DNA from: Candidatus Calescibacterium sp.
GTDB taxonomy: Bacteria; Calescibacteriota; Calescibacteriia; Calescibacteriales; Calescibacteriaceae
Reading direction: 5' to 3'
Length of the DNA stretch: 5,795 nucleotides
Assembly: GCA_025060505.1 (NCBI GenBank)
Contig: JANXBU010000031.1
Span: 1 to 5,795 of the forward strand
Within the stretch, counting starts at the first letter, position 1. The number at the start of each line of letters is the position of its first letter. Both the position numbers and the translations under genes were made by a program. The notes under the pieces are model-generated. The model had not been told where the DNA came from. It saw only the letters and a list, made by a program, of their open reading frames with translations, and searched no databases. Shown piece by piece: positions 1 through 5,780 of this stretch.

Positions 1-29
1 GTTGAATCCTACCTATGAGGGATTGAAAC

Positions 30-64
30 TTGTGTAAAACTTCTTGTATTTTTTCAATCATCGT
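30..64 (+). other. Spacer 1, overlaps spacer 15
   Basis: Its last 12 nt (53-64) equal the first 12 nt of spacer 15 (970-981), a suffix-prefix overlap expected of two neighbouring protospacers on one strand. Read on the opposite strand, the merged sequence contains the end of an aspartate-rich frame (NDNDDD, then stop) that overlaps an ATG opening a second frame, MTMIEKIQEVLH. This looks like tightly packed phage genes. The overlap is short and AT-rich, so it is less certain than the other pairs. Confidence 0.6.
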
Positions 65-94
65 GGTTGAATCCTACCTATGAGGGATTGAAAC
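65..94 (+). repeat. Reference CRISPR direct repeat, GG form (first complete copy)
   Basis: This copy is representative of all repeats. It begins GGTTGAATCC and ends GGATTGAAAC. AATCC (69-73) can pair with GGATT (85-89), giving a 5-bp stem, extendable by a T-G wobble, around the TACCTATGAG centre. The expected Cas6-type cut lies between 86 and 87, leaving ATTGAAAC (87-94) as the 5' handle of the next crRNA. The cut site is inferred from the family and not seen directly. The variable bases, positions 1-2, fall in the 3' tail of the preceding crRNA, far from the handle. Confidence 0.95.
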
Positions 95-161
95 CCGTAT
101 ACGAAAGTTTGGGCGTGCAAGAGATCACAGGGGTTGAATCCTACCTATGAGGGATTGAAAC

Positions 162-199
162 AGAAACGCCTGAGGCAGCTCCAGCACCCAGTTATCTTG
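162..199 (+). other. Spacer 3, overlaps spacer 27
   Basis: Its first 14 nt (162-175, AGAAACGCCTGAGG) are identical to the last 14 nt of spacer 27 (1801-1814). The merged target is open for its whole 63 nt in at least one frame on each strand, so the coding strand is undecided. Spacer 27 shows TTG immediately upstream of this protospacer. Confidence 0.85.
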
Positions 200-229
200 G
201 GTTGAATCCTACCTATGAGGGATTGAAAC

Positions 230-265
230 GTGTAAGTATCTTCGTCCCCAATATCTTTTATCTTT
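230..265 (+). other. Spacer 4, same target site as spacer 29 in a variant
   Basis: It aligns without gaps to spacer 29 (1911-1946) over 36 nt with four differences, all in the last 13 nt. The first 23 nt are identical. Both start at exactly the same base, as expected if a fixed PAM defined the cut in two related invaders. Confidence 0.9.
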
Positions 266-701
266 GGTTGAATCCTACCTATGAGGGATTGAAACAACTT
301 CCGGAAACATATATGTACGTCGGCACTGTGAATTGGTTGAATCCTACCTATGAGGGATTGAAACTCGTTGAAGATGTGGTAGGGGGAAAGACTCAGGACA
401 GGGTTGAATCCTACCTATGAGGGATTGAAACATATCTCCGAAAAGGCCTCCTCAAGCACACTGATTTGAGGTTGAATCCTACCTATGAGGGATTGAAACG
501 TAGAAGATTTTTAATTTTTATTTCCTTTTTCATGGCTGGTTGAATCCTACCTATGAGGGATTGAAACTCCTCCTCCAAAAGGAAAACGGGGTTATATCTG
601 ACTGTGGTTGAATCCTACCTATGAGGGATTGAAACCCGGGTAATATCAGCCCCCCCTGGAGAGCAAACCTTGGTTGAATCCTACCTATGAGGGATTGAAA
701 C

Positions 702-737
702 CTCCCTGAAATGTTGAGATACATCTCAGGGAGTTCT
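702..737 (+). other. Spacer 11, contains an 8-bp perfect inverted repeat
   Basis: CTCCCTGA (702-709) is the exact reverse complement of TCAGGGAG (726-733). A nested alternative stem, TGAGAT (715-720) with ATCTCA (723-728), is also present. The protospacer therefore lies on a natural hairpin or palindromic site of the invader, and the spacer part of this crRNA should fold on itself. Confidence 0.85.
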
Positions 738-835
738 GGTTGAATCCTACCTATGAGGGATTGAAACACACAGGTTGGAAAGTGTTCTTCGTTCTTTGTG
801 ATTTCGGTTGAATCCTACCTATGAGGGATTGAAAC

Positions 836-872
836 TCGTTACCTGAACTACTTGACTTATCATCGTTACCTG
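836..872 (+). other. Spacer 13, from a tandemly repeated coding region
   Basis: TCGTTACCTG occurs at both ends (836-845 and 863-872), a 27-nt period equal to nine codons. It shares a repeated unit with spacer 82 (5446-5483), whose period is 24 nt. On the reverse strand it reads GNDDKSSSSGND; on the forward strand LPELLDLSSLP. Both are open, so the coding strand is undecided. The target is probably a short-repeat linker in a viral protein. Confidence 0.8.
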
Positions 873-969
873 GGTTGAATCCTACCTATGAGGGATTGAA
901 ACTCTTTGAGGATAATATCTTTATCTAATCTGTTAATCTGGTTGAATCCTACCTATGAGGGATTGAAAC

Positions 970-1006
970 TTCAATCATCGTCATTGTCGTTTATGGAAAA
1001 AATAAG
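970..1006 (+). other. Spacer 15, overlaps spacer 1
   Basis: Its first 12 nt (970-981, TTCAATCATCGT) repeat the last 12 nt of spacer 1. If the overlap is real, the three bases upstream of this protospacer are TTT. Confidence 0.6.
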
Positions 1007-1140
1007 GGTTGAATCCTACCTATGAGGGATTGAAACATCTTCTATTCCTTCTCAGATAGTTTGGCTCATAAGGTGGTTGAATCCTACCTATGAGGGATTG
1101 AAACAAGAAAAAGAAATAAGATATATTTTCAGAGAAATAA

Positions 1141-1237
1141 ATTTGAATCCTACCTATGAGGGATTGAAACTTCACAGCATCTTTCAACTTTATATCTTCA
1201 ATGAAGAATTTGAATCCTACCTATGAGGGATTGAAAC
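1141..1237 (+). repeat. Repeat block 2: AT form, 2 copies
   Basis: Repeats at 1141 and 1208 begin ATTTGAATCC in place of GGTTGAATCC and are otherwise identical to their neighbours. This is a short island of the AT form between two long GG blocks. Confidence 0.95.
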
Positions 1238-1278
1238 TTGGATGAGAACTCCTGCACATACGCCTTCAGGAGTTCCCT
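1238..1278 (+). other. Spacer 19, longest spacer (41 nt), with a 9-bp perfect hairpin
   Basis: GAACTCCTG (1246-1254) and CAGGAGTTC (1267-1275) are perfect inverted repeats around a 12-nt loop and fill most of the spacer. At 41 nt it is the only spacer over 39 nt. It also sits at an AT-to-GG repeat switch. Confidence 0.85.
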
Positions 1279-1308
1279 GGTTGAATCCTACCTATGAGGG
1301 ATTGAAAC

Positions 1309-1346
1309 TTCCATCCGTTAACACTATTACTATGGGATTTGTCTCT
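1309..1346 (+). other. Spacer 20, convergent with spacer 79
   Basis: Its first 24 nt (1309-1332) are the exact reverse complement of the first 24 nt of spacer 79 (5246-5269). The two protospacers lie on opposite strands of one locus and overlap by their PAM-proximal halves. Spacer 79 shows CTA immediately upstream of this protospacer. Confidence 0.95.
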
Positions 1347-1709
1347 GGTTGAATCCTACCTATGAGGGATTGAAACATTTATCTGCTTTTTGTAGTTGTG
1401 AGAGAATACTGTGGTTGAATCCTACCTATGAGGGATTGAAACTAAAGTGTGATTTTCTGAAAATTTTTGTTATTTTTAGGTTGAATCCTACCTATGAGGG
1501 ATTGAAACTGTAAAGAGTGAAGCGAGTGGATCAGCGAGATCTTGTGGTTGAATCCTACCTATGAGGGATTGAAACCTTCCGCTCTCTGGTAAGCAAAAAA
1601 CATCTGAAGGTGGTTGAATCCTACCTATGAGGGATTGAAACTCAAAAAGGTTTATGTATGCAAATGTGCTGTTTATTTGGGTTGAATCCTACCTATGAGG
1701 GATTGAAAC

Positions 1710-1745
1710 ATATAACTCTCGGCTCATATTTTGCCCCCGGGAAAA
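1710..1745 (+). other. Spacer 26, homologous overlap with spacer 55
   Basis: A shared 16-mer, ACTCTCGGCTCATATT, lies at 1715-1730 here and at 3670-3685 at the end of spacer 55. The five bases before it differ. On the reverse strand this spacer reads FPGAKYEPRVI and spacer 55 reads YEPRVVRKEFD, so the difference is a synonymous V codon plus an I/V change, as in homologous genes. Projected on spacer 55, the upstream bases are TTC. Confidence 0.75.
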
Positions 1746-1775
1746 GGTTGAATCCTACCTATGAGGGATTGAAAC

Positions 1776-1814
1776 AAGCTCAAGAAGTATCAGCCTGTTG
1801 AGAAACGCCTGAGG
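1776..1814 (+). other. Spacer 27, overlaps spacer 3
   Basis: Its last 14 nt (1801-1814) equal the first 14 nt of spacer 3 (162-175). The base triplet before the overlap, TTG (1798-1800), is the deduced PAM of spacer 3. Confidence 0.85.
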
Positions 1815-1910
1815 GGTTGAATCCTACCTATGAGGGATTGAAACCTGATATTTTTTCTGATATTCGAACATTCAAAGGAAGGTTGAATCCTACCTATGAG
1901 GGATTGAAAC

Positions 1911-1948
1911 GTGTAAGTATCTTCGTCCCCAATCTTTGTTATCTCTTG
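1911..1948 (+). other. Spacer 29, variant of spacer 4
   Basis: It is identical to spacer 4 over its first 23 nt (1911-1933) and differs at four of the next 13 positions. It looks like an independent acquisition from a diverged relative of the same invader. Confidence 0.9.
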
Positions 1949-2046
1949 GGTTGAATCCTACCTATGAGGGATTGAAACATATCCACCGTCTTTGATATTA
2001 TAAAGAGTTCTTCTTTGGTTGAATCCTACCTATGAGGGATTGAAAC

Positions 2047-2083
2047 AAATGATATCCTGAGGAATCCAGGATACCATTTATAG
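2047..2083 (+). other. Spacer 31, contains a 13-position hairpin with one mismatch
   Basis: AAATGATATCCTG (2047-2059) pairs with CAGGATACCATTT (2067-2079) at 12 of 13 positions around a 7-nt loop. It is the longest inverted repeat found in any spacer. There is no terminator-like T run after it. Confidence 0.85.
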
Positions 2084-2351
2084 GGTTGAATCCTACCTAT
2101 GAGGGATTGAAACACATAAGCTGTCTTGGTATCTGCGGAATAAAATTCCCCGGTTGAATCCTACCTATGAGGGATTGAAACTGGATCCTCTTACGATCCT
2201 GGCACTTGGAGCTGGTGGGTTGAATCCTACCTATGAGGGATTGAAACATAATTTTACTTCTTTCCTTTTCTTCGAATACCTAGGTTGAATCCTACCTATG
2301 AGGGATTGAAACAGGGGGCAGGGGAGTTGTTTTATAGGTATATTTGGGCAA

Positions 2352-2582
2352 ATTTGAATCCTACCTATGAGGGATTGAAACCAATCCATACCCGCAATTC
2401 AAAATAGACGAAATTATGATTTGAATCCTACCTATGAGGGATTGAAACAAGATGACTACTATGAAACATTTTGGGATCTCATTCGGATTTGAATCCTACC
2501 TATGAGGGATTGAAACTCAAGAATAATCCGAAAACAAGCTTTCAATACATCCATTTGAATCCTACCTATGAGGGATTGAAAC
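2352..2582 (+). repeat. Repeat block 4: AT form, 4 copies
   Basis: Repeats at 2352, 2419, 2487 and 2553 begin ATTTGAATCC. Confidence 0.95.
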
Positions 2583-2618
2583 TATCTAATTCGGAGTTTG
2601 TATCTGCTTGCGTCTTTC

Positions 2619-3381
2619 GGTTGAATCCTACCTATGAGGGATTGAAACAAGAAAATCCTTCAGTCTTAAATGTGGGAGTTCCTTGGTTGAATCCTACCTA
2701 TGAGGGATTGAAACTGATGAGTGCGGGGGTGTATGTGGCGGAGAGGGATGGGTTGAATCCTACCTATGAGGGATTGAAACTTTTTTACCTCCTTATACCA
2801 CAACCCGCATAATTTGGGTTGAATCCTACCTATGAGGGATTGAAACCAAAGCTGGTTCATACGACGAGCATATCCTTGTTTTTGGGTTGAATCCTACCTA
2901 TGAGGGATTGAAACTTACTATGATGATAGGAATAAAAAGGAAAGATTTTGGTTGAATCCTACCTATGAGGGATTGAAACTCATCTAAATCTTCTAATTCA
3001 GCATTTACATCTTTAGGTTGAATCCTACCTATGAGGGATTGAAACCCCTAGGAATAAAAGGACTTATGTCAATTCCCTCAGAATGGTTGAATCCTACCTA
3101 TGAGGGATTGAAACTATATGAAAGAAAAGGAACATTATACCAAAGTGCTAGGTTGAATCCTACCTATGAGGGATTGAAACCTGACTGCCTGCCACCTGAA
3201 CCATTCTTTTTGCTTCGGGTTGAATCCTACCTATGAGGGATTGAAACTGAATAAATGCACAGTGATATATGTGGGTATTGATTGGGTTGAATCCTACCTA
3301 TGAGGGATTGAAACTCTTTCCCGAGCTATACCTAAGAAAGTTCAGATTAGGGGTTGAATCCTACCTATGAGGGATTGAAAC
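2619..3381 (+). repeat. Repeat block 5: GG form, 12 copies
   Basis: Repeats start at 2619, 2685, 2751, 2817, 2885, 2950, 3016, 3085, 3151, 3218, 3285 and 3352, all beginning GGTTGAATCC. Confidence 0.95.
2980..3015 (+). other. Spacer 45, same target site as spacer 52
   Basis: It aligns without gaps to spacer 52 (3448-3483) with 32 of 36 identical. The differences are at positions 9, 21, 27 and 36, all multiples of three. On the reverse strand it reads KDVNAELEDLD against KDVNAELEELD, so the changes fall at wobble positions and give one D/E change. The forward frame also tolerates them (one K/N change). Confidence 0.92.
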
Positions 3382-3447
3382 CGGCTTCTTTCACCTCATC
3401 AAGTGATACCTTCCTCAATTTGAATCCTACCTATGAGGGATTGAAAC

Positions 3448-3484
3448 TCATCTAACTCTTCTAATTCGGCATTCACATCTTTGC
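3448..3484 (+). other. Spacer 52, same target site as spacer 45
   Basis: It is the partner of 2980-3015, with the same 5' edge and wobble-type differences. It lies seven spacers away, in an AT-repeat block, while its partner is in a GG block. Confidence 0.92.
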
Positions 3485-3648
3485 ATTTGAATCCTACCTA
3501 TGAGGGATTGAAACTAAATTCAGGTGCGATATAAAGAAAACCGAACTCAAGATTTGAATCCTACCTATGAGGGATTGAAACACAAGGGATTTAAATGGTC
3601 TAAGGTAAAGCAGACACAATTTGAATCCTACCTATGAGGGATTGAAAC

Positions 3649-3685
3649 AGATCAAATTCTTTTCTAACTACTCTCGGCTCATATT
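3649..3685 (+). other. Spacer 55, homologous overlap with spacer 26
   Basis: Its final 16 nt (3670-3685) are shared with spacer 26. The remaining bases extend the homologous target upstream and show TTC (3662-3664) before the projected start of the spacer 26 protospacer. Confidence 0.75.
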
Positions 3686-4018
3686 ATTTGAATCCTACCT
3701 ATGAGGGATTGAAACCAGATCATCTTGAGTCTGCTGGGAATCTTGAGAATTATTTGAATCCTACCTATGAGGGATTGAAACTTCCCACCTCCTTGGGGTA
3801 AGATTGTAATCTTCCAGGCATTTGAATCCTACCTATGAGGGATTGAAACCCTAATTCAGCAATTTGACTAAGAATCTTTGGAGCAATTTGAATCCTACCT
3901 ATGAGGGATTGAAACTTCTTTTTGGGGCTGGTTTTCTTTGGATTGTTTCTGTATTTGAATCCTACCTATGAGGGATTGAAACTTGATGGATACACAAGCT
4001 ACATCTTTACGGAAGATA

Positions 4019-4248
4019 GGTTGAATCCTACCTATGAGGGATTGAAACTAGGCTTCAAGAAACAAACAAAATTCCCTTTCTAATTGGTTGAATCCTACCT
4101 ATGAGGGATTGAAACCCGCTCTTCTTGCCATAATTTTTTTTACGGGGTCTTGGGTTGAATCCTACCTATGAGGGATTGAAACTGAAATTCGCATAAGCTT
4201 CTTTTTGTGAATGATATAGGTTGAATCCTACCTATGAGGGATTGAAAC
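4019..4248 (+). repeat. Repeat block 7: GG form, 4 copies
   Basis: Repeats at 4019, 4086, 4153 and 4219 begin GGTTGAATCC. This short GG block lies between the long AT block and the only GT block. Confidence 0.95.
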
Positions 4249-4285
4249 AGGAAGATCGTCATCGTCATTAAGAACCTCGGTTGAA
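4249..4285 (+). other. Spacer 64, ends with a repeat-like GGTTGAA
   Basis: The last seven bases (4279-4285) equal the first seven of the GG repeat and directly abut the first GT repeat at 4286. The total length of 37 nt is normal, so this is not a simple insertion of extra repeat sequence. It sits exactly at the single GG-to-GT switch. Confidence 0.6.
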
Positions 4286-4315
4286 GTTTGAATCCTACCT
4301 ATGAGGGATTGAAAC

Positions 4316-4352
4316 TAAAAGACCGTAGTTAACTAAAATTGAATCCCTGTGA
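4316..4352 (+). other. Spacer 65, contains a degraded repeat-like segment
   Basis: TTGAATCCCTGTGA (4339-4352), followed by the G of the next repeat, matches the repeat from TTGAATCC to CTATGAG if TAC is deleted and one base is changed. This may be chance, or the target may itself resemble a CRISPR repeat. Confidence 0.5.
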
Positions 4353-4581
4353 GTTTGAATCCTACCTATGAGGGATTGAAACAACTCATCAAGATAATCC
4401 TGAATGTATCTTTCAAGGGTTTGAATCCTACCTATGAGGGATTGAAACCTTTTGCCTCAGGGGCAGTAACCCATATCACGGGAACGTTTGAATCCTACCT
4501 ATGAGGGATTGAAACTCGGCTTCGGGATTTTGAGGATTTCCGATTATTCTTGTTTGAATCCTACCTATGAGGGATTGAAAC

Positions 4582-4618
4582 AGAGATCAGGGTTGAATCT
4601 AATGAACAATTGCAGCTT
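4582..4618 (+). other. Spacer 69, contains a repeat-like GGTTGAATC
   Basis: GGTTGAATC (4591-4599) is identical to the first nine bases of the GG repeat and is followed by TAATGA, loosely like the repeat's TATGAG. The spacer lies in the GT block, so the match is to the GG form and not to its immediate neighbours. Confidence 0.5.
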
Positions 4619-4648
4619 GTTTGAATCCTACCTATGAGGGATTGAAAC

Positions 4649-4684
4649 AAGGTAAAGAACCATACGAGGCTTTGACTTGGGTTT
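4649..4684 (+). other. Spacer 70, overlaps spacer 72 in a variant
   Basis: Its first 24 nt (4649-4672) match the last 24 nt of spacer 72 (4795-4818) at 22 positions. On the reverse strand it reads KPKSKPRMVLYL against KPRLVLYLKFEI, so the two changes are one synonymous R codon and one M/L change. The deduced upstream triplet is CTT. Confidence 0.88.
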
Positions 4685-4780
4685 GTTTGAATCCTACCTA
4701 TGAGGGATTGAAACTCATTGAGGGAGCAAAAATGGAGCAGATATCTAATAGTTTGAATCCTACCTATGAGGGATTGAAAC

Positions 4781-4818
4781 ATGATTTCGAACTTAAGGTA
4801 AAGAACCAGCCGAGGCTT
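4781..4818 (+). other. Spacer 72, overlaps spacer 70
   Basis: Its last 24 nt align with the start of spacer 70 with two adjacent differences (positions 15-16 of the overlap). Bases 4792-4794, CTT, are the deduced PAM of spacer 70. The two spacers are close in the array, so they were probably acquired close in time from related invaders. Confidence 0.88.
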
Positions 4819-5215
4819 GTTTGAATCCTACCTATGAGGGATTGAAACTTCTCATCTCCTGACAGTGTGAATTCGTCAATAGCTGTTTGAATCCTACCTA
4901 TGAGGGATTGAAACAAAAAGTCATAGATACATATCTCAAATGGAGATGATGTTTGAATCCTACCTATGAGGGATTGAAACTCTCATCACAGGCGCTTCTG
5001 AAAAGGTGGGGAAGAAGTTTGAATCCTACCTATGAGGGATTGAAACCCCCAAGTCTTATACCTTGTTGTTTCACGATAAGGGGTTTGAATCCTACCTATG
5101 AGGGATTGAAACTTGTATTTATTTTCATATTTTTCTTTGACGAGACATGTTTGAATCCTACCTATGAGGGATTGAAACATAATAAGGGAACCGTAATTAA
5201 GAAAATCCGTCAGTT

Positions 5216-5378
5216 ATTTGAATCCTACCTATGAGGGATTGAAACTAGTAATAGTGTTAACGGATGGAATAGGGGAATATCATTTGAATCCTACCTATGA
5301 GGGATTGAAACAATTTCAAAGAGTCCCAGAAGAGTTAGGTGCAGCTCCATTTGAATCCTACCTATGAGGGATTGAAAC
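5216..5378 (+). repeat. Repeat block 9: AT form, 3 copies
   Basis: Repeats at 5216, 5282 and 5349 begin ATTTGAATCC. Confidence 0.95.
5246..5281 (+). other. Spacer 79, convergent with spacer 20
   Basis: Its first 24 nt (5246-5269) are the exact reverse complement of 1309-1332. Spacer 20 shows CCA immediately upstream of this protospacer. The two crRNAs would be complementary to each other over 24 nt. Confidence 0.95.
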
Positions 5379-5415
5379 AGTGTCTCTTCAAGCACACCTG
5401 TGTCATCAACTATGA

Positions 5416-5780
5416 GGTTGAATCCTACCTATGAGGGATTGAAACACCTGAACTTGACTTATCATCTTTACCTGAACTTGACTGGTTGAATCCTACCTAT
5501 GAGGGATTGAAACCTGCAAGAGAAAAGTTACCGCATGTGCTTGAATTCAGGTTGAATCCTACCTATGAGGGATTGAAACTACATCCACTCAGAAATAGTA
5601 GAAAAGAAATCCCAAAGGTTGAATCCTACCTATGAGGGATTGAAACGAAAAGAGAGAATATTTTCAATGTATTCCTCTTTGTAGGTTGAATCCTACCTAT
5701 GAGGGATTGAAACTGAAATCTATATACTTCTTGTCTATGAACTTACTGAAGGTTGAATCCTACCTATGAGGGATTGAAAC
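5416..5780 (+). repeat. Repeat block 10: GG form, 6 copies
   Basis: Repeats at 5416, 5484, 5550, 5617, 5684 and 5751 begin GGTTGAATCC. The last repeat is still perfect, so the leader-distal end of the array has not been reached. Confidence 0.95.
5446..5483 (+). other. Spacer 82, two copies of a 14-nt unit (24-nt period)
   Basis: ACCTGAACTTGACT occurs at 5446-5459 and again at 5470-5483, a period of 24 nt or eight codons. It is homologous to spacer 13, which has one extra codon per period. The reverse strand reads SSSGKDDKSSSG and the forward strand PELDLSSLPELD. Confidence 0.85.

What the first reader, a model, noticed from the sequence alone, without database searches (positions are those of the whole stretch)
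1309..5281. PAM of the system (5'-YYN) can be read from the array itself
When two spacers come from overlapping protospacers, one records the bases flanking the other. The triplets directly 5' of the protospacers are TTG (spacer 3, from 27), CTA (spacer 20, from 79), CCA (spacer 79, from 20), CTT (spacer 70, from 72), TTT (spacer 15, from 1) and TTC (spacer 26, from the homologous spacer 55). If the tandem repeat in spacers 13 and 82 continues upstream, they add TCA and TTT. All eight have pyrimidines at -3 and -2. YYN fits PAMs known for clostridial type I-B systems such as CCA and TCA, and supports the orientation with the handle 5' of the spacer.
Basis: partly seen in the sequence, partly recalled or inferred. 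Interest (0 to 1): 0.7.

Follow-up and report, generated by a model that had tools for sequence, protein, structure and literature searches.

The report
CRISPR array reveals its target motif
A bacterium's CRISPR memory bank holds enough overlapping snippets of its targets to read off, from the array and its own assembly, the short DNA tag (YYN, mostly TTA, TTG or CTA) its defence uses to choose targets; the tag is the usual one for this class of CRISPR system.

Summary
The window is a whole contig (87 repeats, 86 spacers) of a draft genome whose four contigs with this repeat hold 207 countable spacers. All six overlap triplets and both conditional ones read as stated; one (spacer 15 from spacer 1, 12 nt) is at noise level. 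Extending the test to all 207 spacers and to viral-like DNA on contig C45, which contains exact or near-exact protospacers, gives 32 spacers with a confident 5' flank. Of these, 30 are YYN (10.3 expected, P about 2e-13) and 23 are YTR (2.1 expected). TTA, TTG and CTA make up 22 of the 32, and there is no matching signal on the 3' side. The motif is therefore better written YYN with a strong YTR core. The genome carries a complete type I-B (Cas8b1-like) cas operon. Published Cas8b1 PAMs are YYD, TTN/TNA and TTA (weaker CTA, TCA, TTG, TTT), nearly the same list. Of 20 spacers mapped to C45, 17 are antisense to its ORFs, and a III-A operon without its own array is present, as in known I-B/III shared arrays. 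A solid new member of a known kind. No protospacer was found in outside collections.

The parts
1..5780 (+). CRISPR array: 87 repeats (26-nt invariant core plus a GGTT/ATTT/GTTT start) and 86 spacers; the repeat ends in the 8-nt 5' handle ATTGAAAC
   Evidence: Rfam CRISPR-DR2 matches
162..199 (+). spacer 3; 5' flank TTG read from spacer 27
296..334 (+). spacer 5; 5' flank TTA in C45:2640-2678(-), 35/39 identical
970..1006 (+). spacer 15; 5' flank TTT from spacer 1 (12-nt overlap, noise level)
1309..1346 (+). spacer 20; 5' flank CTA read from spacer 79 (24/24 nt, opposite strand)
1710..1745 (+). spacer 26; 5' flank TTC (from spacer 55) or TTT (from C45)
1776..1814 (+). spacer 27, the source that records the flank of spacer 3
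2583..2618 (+). spacer 39; 5' flank TTA from C46 spacer 26; itself records CTA for C46 spacer 37
2649..2684 (+). spacer 40; apparent exception, flank ATC in C45, but only 14 nt match (paralogue)
3046..3084 (+). spacer 46; records CTA in front of C46 spacer 2 (34/34 nt)
3649..3685 (+). spacer 55, homologue that gives the flank of spacer 26
4049..4085 (+). spacer 61; 5' flank TCA in C45:2513-2549
4649..4684 (+). spacer 70; 5' flank CTT from spacer 72 (22/24 nt)
4715..4750 (+). spacer 71; 5' flank TTG in C45:3312-3347, 35/36 identical
4781..4818 (+). spacer 72; 5' flank TTA in C45:624-661 (29/38 identical)
5246..5281 (+). spacer 79; 5' flank CCA read from spacer 20 (24/24 nt)
836..872 (+). spacer 13; internal 27-nt period gives TCA if the repeat continues upstream (assumption)
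   Evidence: sequence
5446..5483 (+). spacer 82; internal 24-nt period gives TTT if the repeat continues upstream (assumption)
   Evidence: sequence

Best explanation
The window is one of several arrays served by a type I-B (Cas8b1-like) CRISPR-Cas system. The adaptation proteins (Cas4-Cas1-Cas2, inferred) cut prespacers next to a 5' PAM, here YYN with a strong YTR core (TTA > TTG ~ CTA, then TCA, TTT, CCA, CTT, TTC, CTG). They insert the prespacers with the PAM-proximal end next to the ATTGAAAC repeat end, and Cascade is expected to read the same motif on invading DNA. The motif can be read from the array because the host sampled the same or paralogous target genes repeatedly, so that one spacer records the bases just outside another. 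Shown: flanks, statistics, orientation, cas operon. Inferred: assignment of the array to that operon, the enzymes involved, and use of the motif in interference.
For: Of 207 spacers, 32 have a confident 5' flank (score at least 14; shuffled spacers reach that about 0.2 times per run). 30/32 are YYN (expected 10.3 from the same sources and strands, P 1.7e-13) and 23/32 are YTR (expected 2.1). The YYN fraction is 0.94 at offset 0 and 0.09-0.55 at every other offset from -12 to +12; YTR is 0.72 at offset 0 and at most 0.13 elsewhere. Spacer-spacer overlaps alone give 12/12 YY and C45 protospacers 18/20. Exact or near-exact protospacers: C43_34 37/37 TTA, C43_55 36/36 TTG, C43_48 37/38 CTA, window spacer 71 35/36 TTG. 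Several homologous spacer pairs start at the same base but end 1-2 nt apart, so the 5' end is the fixed edge. Complete operon cas6-cas8b(TM1802/Csh1)-cas7-cas5-cas3-cas4-cas1-cas2 on C38, with a leader-like stretch that ends in the GG that begins the GGTT repeat variant. A 106-spacer array with a near-identical repeat core in an unrelated genome shows no confident spacer overlap, so the method does not create them. Cas8b1 PAMs in the literature are YYD, TTN/TNA and TTA (PMC13199841).
Against: Two exceptions: C43 spacer 36 (GAA at 36/37 identity) and window spacer 40 (ATC, 14-nt match). The P values treat spacers as independent although several hit paralogous or identical sites. All complete protospacers come from one contig (C45) that is itself a mosaic of array and viral-like sequence, probably an assembly chimera. 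No protospacer was found in the plasmid, phage or viral-contig searches made. The array contig is not physically joined to the cas operon.
Confidence: 0.92

Rival explanations
1. The YY flanks reflect only the pyrimidine-rich strand of the target genes and a few correlated overlaps; there is no PAM (for example a purely type III, PAM-independent array).
For: The C45 strand matched by most spacers is pyrimidine-rich (YYN 0.36 against 0.25 on the other strand), and a III-A operon is present.
Against: The test uses the background of the same source and strand; 30/32 against 10.3 expected. The signal exists only at offset 0, and YTR is about equally common on both strands (147 and 161 sites) yet occurs in 23/32. 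The three antisense-strand hits also read TTA, TTA and CTG.
Confidence: 0.03
2. The true motif is narrower than YYN (YTR, or TTA with tolerated variants), and the CCA, CTT, TTC and TTT cases are paralogue differences or tolerated minor PAMs.
For: -2 is T in 28/32 and -1 is A or G in 27/32. P. thermoglucosidasius I-B uses TTA best and CTA, TCA, TTG and TTT weakly (PMC10551041); these five triplets make up 26 of the 32 here.
Against: CCA (spacer 79) comes from a 24/24 identical overlap, so at least one YCA is real.
Confidence: 0.6
3. The array is shared: spacers chosen by the I-B adaptation machinery with this PAM are also loaded into the III-A (Csm) complex, which needs crRNA antisense to mRNA.
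For: 17 of 20 spacers mapped on C45 are antisense to its ORFs although YTR sites are about equal on both strands (P 0.001). csm1 and csm3-csm5 are on C22 with no array and no adaptation gene recognised nearby. This arrangement is common (71 of 85 shared-repeat cases in PMC8482600 are I-B with III).
Against: csm1 is split by a frameshift or stop in this assembly. Only 20 spacers on one target region. Primed adaptation or type I-B itself can also give strand bias.
Confidence: 0.6
4. The motif lies on the 3' side and the array is read in the other direction.
For: None beyond a weak excess of pyrimidines at 3' position +1 (15 of 19).
Against: Reverse-complemented 3' triplets are YYN in 6 of 19, the background level. 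Homologous spacers share 5' ends, not 3' ends. The cas operon contig ends in leader-like DNA in the same orientation.
Confidence: 0.01

Closest known systems
Thermotoga maritima type I-B1 (Cas8b1/TM1802), PAM YYD
   Same: Cas8b matches the TM1802 family full length (320 bits); the repeat-adjacent triplet is AAC in both; 5' pyrimidines at -3 and -2, A favoured at -1 (PMC13199841)
   Different: Here T dominates at -2 and purines at -1 (YTR). This is inferred from natural spacers, not from a binding or cleavage screen.
Parageobacillus thermoglucosidasius type I-B, PAM TTA with weaker CTA, TCA, TTG, TTT
   Same: The same five triplets account for 26 of 32 flanks here; that genome also carries a type III system
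   Different: Cellular interference data there; spacer statistics only here. The co-resident type III is III-B there and III-A here.
Hungateiclostridium (Clostridium) thermocellum type I-B1, PAM TTN/TNA
   Same: Cas8b1, AAC repeat end, T at -3 and -2 (table in PMC13199841)
   Different: C at -3 is common here (9/32).
I-B/III multi-effector compatible arrays (Vink et al. 2021, PMC8482600)
   Same: Type I PAM, coding-strand bias and a type III operon without its own adaptation genes
   Different: Small sample from one target region; the type III csm1 gene is interrupted in the assembly.

Membership tests
CRISPR-Cas type I-B (Cas8b1) | signature cas8b with cas5, cas7 and cas6 | tested here: met
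   TIGR02556/TIGR02591, TIGR02592, TIGR02590 and TIGR01877, all over cut-off
CRISPR-Cas type I-B (Cas8b1) | cas3 helicase with HD nuclease | tested here: met
   TIGR01587 and TIGR01596 in one 794-aa protein
CRISPR-Cas type I-B (Cas8b1) | adaptation genes cas1b, cas2, cas4 | tested here: met
   TIGR03641, TIGR01573 and TIGR00372 over cut-off
CRISPR-Cas type I-B (Cas8b1) | 5' PAM with pyrimidines at -3 and -2 (Cas8b1 trend), different from the repeat end AAC | tested here: met
   30/32 YYN; repeat end AAC (trend)
CRISPR-Cas type I-B (Cas8b1) | this array is physically linked to the operon | tested here: inconclusive
   window and operon are on different contigs; the operon contig ends at GG, the start of the GGTT repeat variant
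CRISPR-Cas type I-B (Cas8b1) | PAM-dependent DNA interference | not testable with these tools
   needs an interference assay
I-B/III-A shared (multi-effector compatible) array | type III effector genes without own adaptation genes and array | tested here: met
   csm1, csm3, csm4 and csm5 on C22; no direct repeats in the 19 kb fetched. csm1 is frameshifted in the assembly.
I-B/III-A shared (multi-effector compatible) array | bias of spacers to be antisense to mRNA | tested here: met
   17/20, P 0.001 against equal PAM supply; one target region only
I-B/III-A shared (multi-effector compatible) array | crRNAs of this array bound by the Csm complex | not testable with these tools
   needs crRNA sequencing

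The most novel reading that the evidence does not exclude
Contig C45 is a real mobile element, not an assembly chimera: a tandem family of unknown genes interleaved with short arrays of the host's repeat, so that the target of the host's spacers itself carries mini-CRISPR arrays, as some archaeal viruses do.
Probability: 0.07. Interest if true: 0.6.

Novelty: new member of a known kind. Interest (0 to 1): 0.3.

Why it matters
It shows that a PAM can be derived from an array and its own draft assembly when no target genome is known, here for a lineage with only four relatives in its family among the genomes held. The result agrees with biochemical PAM screens of Cas8b1 systems, so natural spacers, cell assays and purified proteins point to the same recognition rule. 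It also gives practical guidance (TTA, TTG or CTA next to the target) for anyone testing this system.

Tried and rejected
Searches for protospacers outside the genome found nothing. A 4-kb array stretch against phages, the window's spacers against plasmids, the repeat and three target-derived DNA patterns against viral contigs, and two C45 proteins against viral contigs gave no match; one C45 protein was also searched against phages and plasmids without result. The repeat core has no exact copy in the species genome collection. The rest of the window's own genome holds no convincing protospacers outside C45 and the arrays. The C45 gene family is absent from the four family relatives and has no Pfam or PHROG hit worth naming. 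The virus-array junctions on C45 did not give usable PAM readings because spacer length there is unknown. The array of genome G058, tried as a second example, had no confident spacer overlaps and served as a negative control. Cas8b has no sequence relative in the PDB at E 0.01, and only one distant named relative was found.
Full report
What the window is. The 5,795 bases are one complete contig (C40) of a 115-contig, 2.28-Mb draft genome estimated 86% complete. It consists only of CRISPR array: 87 copies of GAATCCTACCTATGAGGGATTGAAAC and 86 spacers of 35-41 nt. Each copy is preceded by GGTT, ATTT or GTTT, and these variants come in long blocks: 10 runs against 46.9 expected after shuffling. 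The same repeat occurs on three other contigs: C43 (63 copies), C46 (48) and C45 (15). Together they hold 207 spacers that could be delimited.

All six overlap triplets were recomputed and are as stated. The overlaps 20/79 (24 of 24 nt) and 70/72 (22 of 24) are far outside the null distribution. The overlap 3/27 (14 of 14) is also above it. The overlap 15/1 (12 nt) is not, because shuffled spacers give several hits of that score per run. The two triplets taken from internal periodicity (13 and 82) are read correctly but rest on an assumption.

A larger and fairer test. I aligned the start of each of the 207 spacers, without gaps, to all other spacers on both strands and to the non-array parts of contig C45. 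I kept the best hit per spacer. C45 joins pieces of array to viral-like DNA, a tandem family of unknown genes, and that DNA contains exact or near-exact protospacers: C43 spacer 34 (37/37), C43 spacer 55 (36/36), C43 spacer 48 (37/38), window spacer 71 (35/36) and others. At a score of 14 or more, which shuffled spacers reach about 0.2 times per run, 32 spacers have a readable 5' flank.

Result. The 32 triplets are TTA 9, TTG 7, CTA 6, TCA 2, TTT 2, and one each of CCA, CTG, CTT, TTC, GAA and ATC. YYN is met by 30 of 32, against 10.3 expected from the same sources and strands (P 1.7e-13). YTR is met by 23 of 32, against 2.1 expected (P 6e-21). These P values assume independence, and at least one pair of spacers shares a target site, so they are somewhat optimistic. 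The signal is confined to the triplet directly 5' of the protospacer; the same test one to twelve bases away gives 0.09-0.55 for YYN and at most 0.13 for YTR. Spacer-spacer overlaps alone give 12 of 12 and C45 gives 18 of 20. In the window alone it is 10 of 11. Reverse-complemented 3' triplets are YYN in 6 of 19, the background rate. A further argument needs no flanks: several pairs of homologous spacers begin at exactly the same base but end one or two bases apart, as expected if the 5' edge is set by a motif and the 3' edge by a loose ruler.

Exceptions. C43 spacer 36 matches C45 at 36 of 37 positions with GAA in front. On the opposite strand its other end is preceded by TTG, a normal PAM, so it may have been inserted in reverse, an event known at low frequency (under 0.5% in a type I-F system, PMC5059440). 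One case is not proof. Window spacer 40 (ATC) matches only over 14 bases and evidently comes from another paralogue.

Which system. Contig C38 ends with a complete type I-B operon, cas6-cas8b-cas7-cas5-cas3-cas4-cas1-cas2. It is followed by about 160 bases that stop at GG, the first two letters of the GGTT repeat variant. Cas8b belongs to the TM1802/Csh1 group, i.e. Cas8b1 by the usual naming. A second cas1-cas2 pair on C11 has a different repeat and does not concern this array.

Comparison with known PAMs. The published profile of the T. maritima I-B1 system is YYD, with A most favoured at -1 and T at -3 and the repeat end AAC rejected. The same paper lists TTN/TNA for H. thermocellum and TTA for P. 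thermoglucosidasius, both Cas8b1 with repeat end AAC (PMC13199841). In P. thermoglucosidasius TTA is best and CTA, TCA, TTG and TTT work weakly (PMC10551041); these five triplets account for 26 of the 32 here. The host's family has four relatives among the genomes held and nothing else closer than domain level was listed. A gene for lipid A synthesis (LpxD) next to the csm operon argues against a clostridium.

Possible double use of the array. Of 20 spacers mapped to C45, 17 lie on the strand antisense to its genes although both strands offer about equal numbers of YTR sites (P 0.001). Their crRNAs would pair with mRNA. The genome has a III-A operon (csm1, csm3, csm4, csm5) without an array in the 19 kb fetched, though csm1 is split by a frameshift in the assembly. 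This resembles the common I-B/III shared arrays of Vink et al. (PMC8482600). Sharing is an inference here.

What could not be shown. Only a few spacers and two proteins could be tried against the viral contigs, and only the window's array or spacers against phages and plasmids. A 106-spacer array with a similar repeat in an unrelated genome gave no confident overlaps, a useful negative control.

Verdict. The reading is correct, can be sharpened from YYN to YYN with a YTR core, and describes an ordinary Cas8b1-type PAM in an uncommon lineage. It is a good piece of sequence reading with modest novelty.

Noticed in passing
window 1-5780: The first bases of the repeat (GGTT, ATTT, GTTT) change in long blocks along the array: 10 runs against 46.9 expected. 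This may record recombination between arrays or successive leader-end repeats.
   Followed up: partly
L017 (contig C45) 1-3395: Array pieces with 2, 8 and 5 repeats alternate with tandem copies of an unknown gene family that many spacers target; probably assembly joins at spacer/protospacer identity, possibly a real element with mini-arrays. A partial repeat lies at about 2145-2159.
   Followed up: partly
L039 8357-14282 (contig C22): III-A csm operon; csm1 is split by a frameshift or stop and csm3 lacks about 30 N-terminal residues in the assembly.
   Followed up: partly
all four arrays: G is depleted at the first base of spacers: 13 of 207 against 18% overall (P 2e-6), independent of the PAM readings.
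   Followed up: partly
L011 (contig C43, reverse strand), spacers 3 and 20: Two spacers contain pieces of the repeat itself (GGTTGAATCCTA and TATGAGGGATTGAAAC), perhaps traces of array recombination or self-derived spacers.
   Followed up: no
L022 1-1300 (contig C11): A second, partial cas1 and a cas2-like ORF next to four copies of a different repeat, CCAGACCCGTACATAAGGGGATTGCGAC (one degenerate).
   Followed up: no
window 702-737 and 2047-2083: Spacers 11 and 31 contain inverted repeats (CTCCCTGA...TCAGGGAG; ATCCTG...CAGGAT), suggesting hairpin or terminator regions as targets.
   Followed up: no
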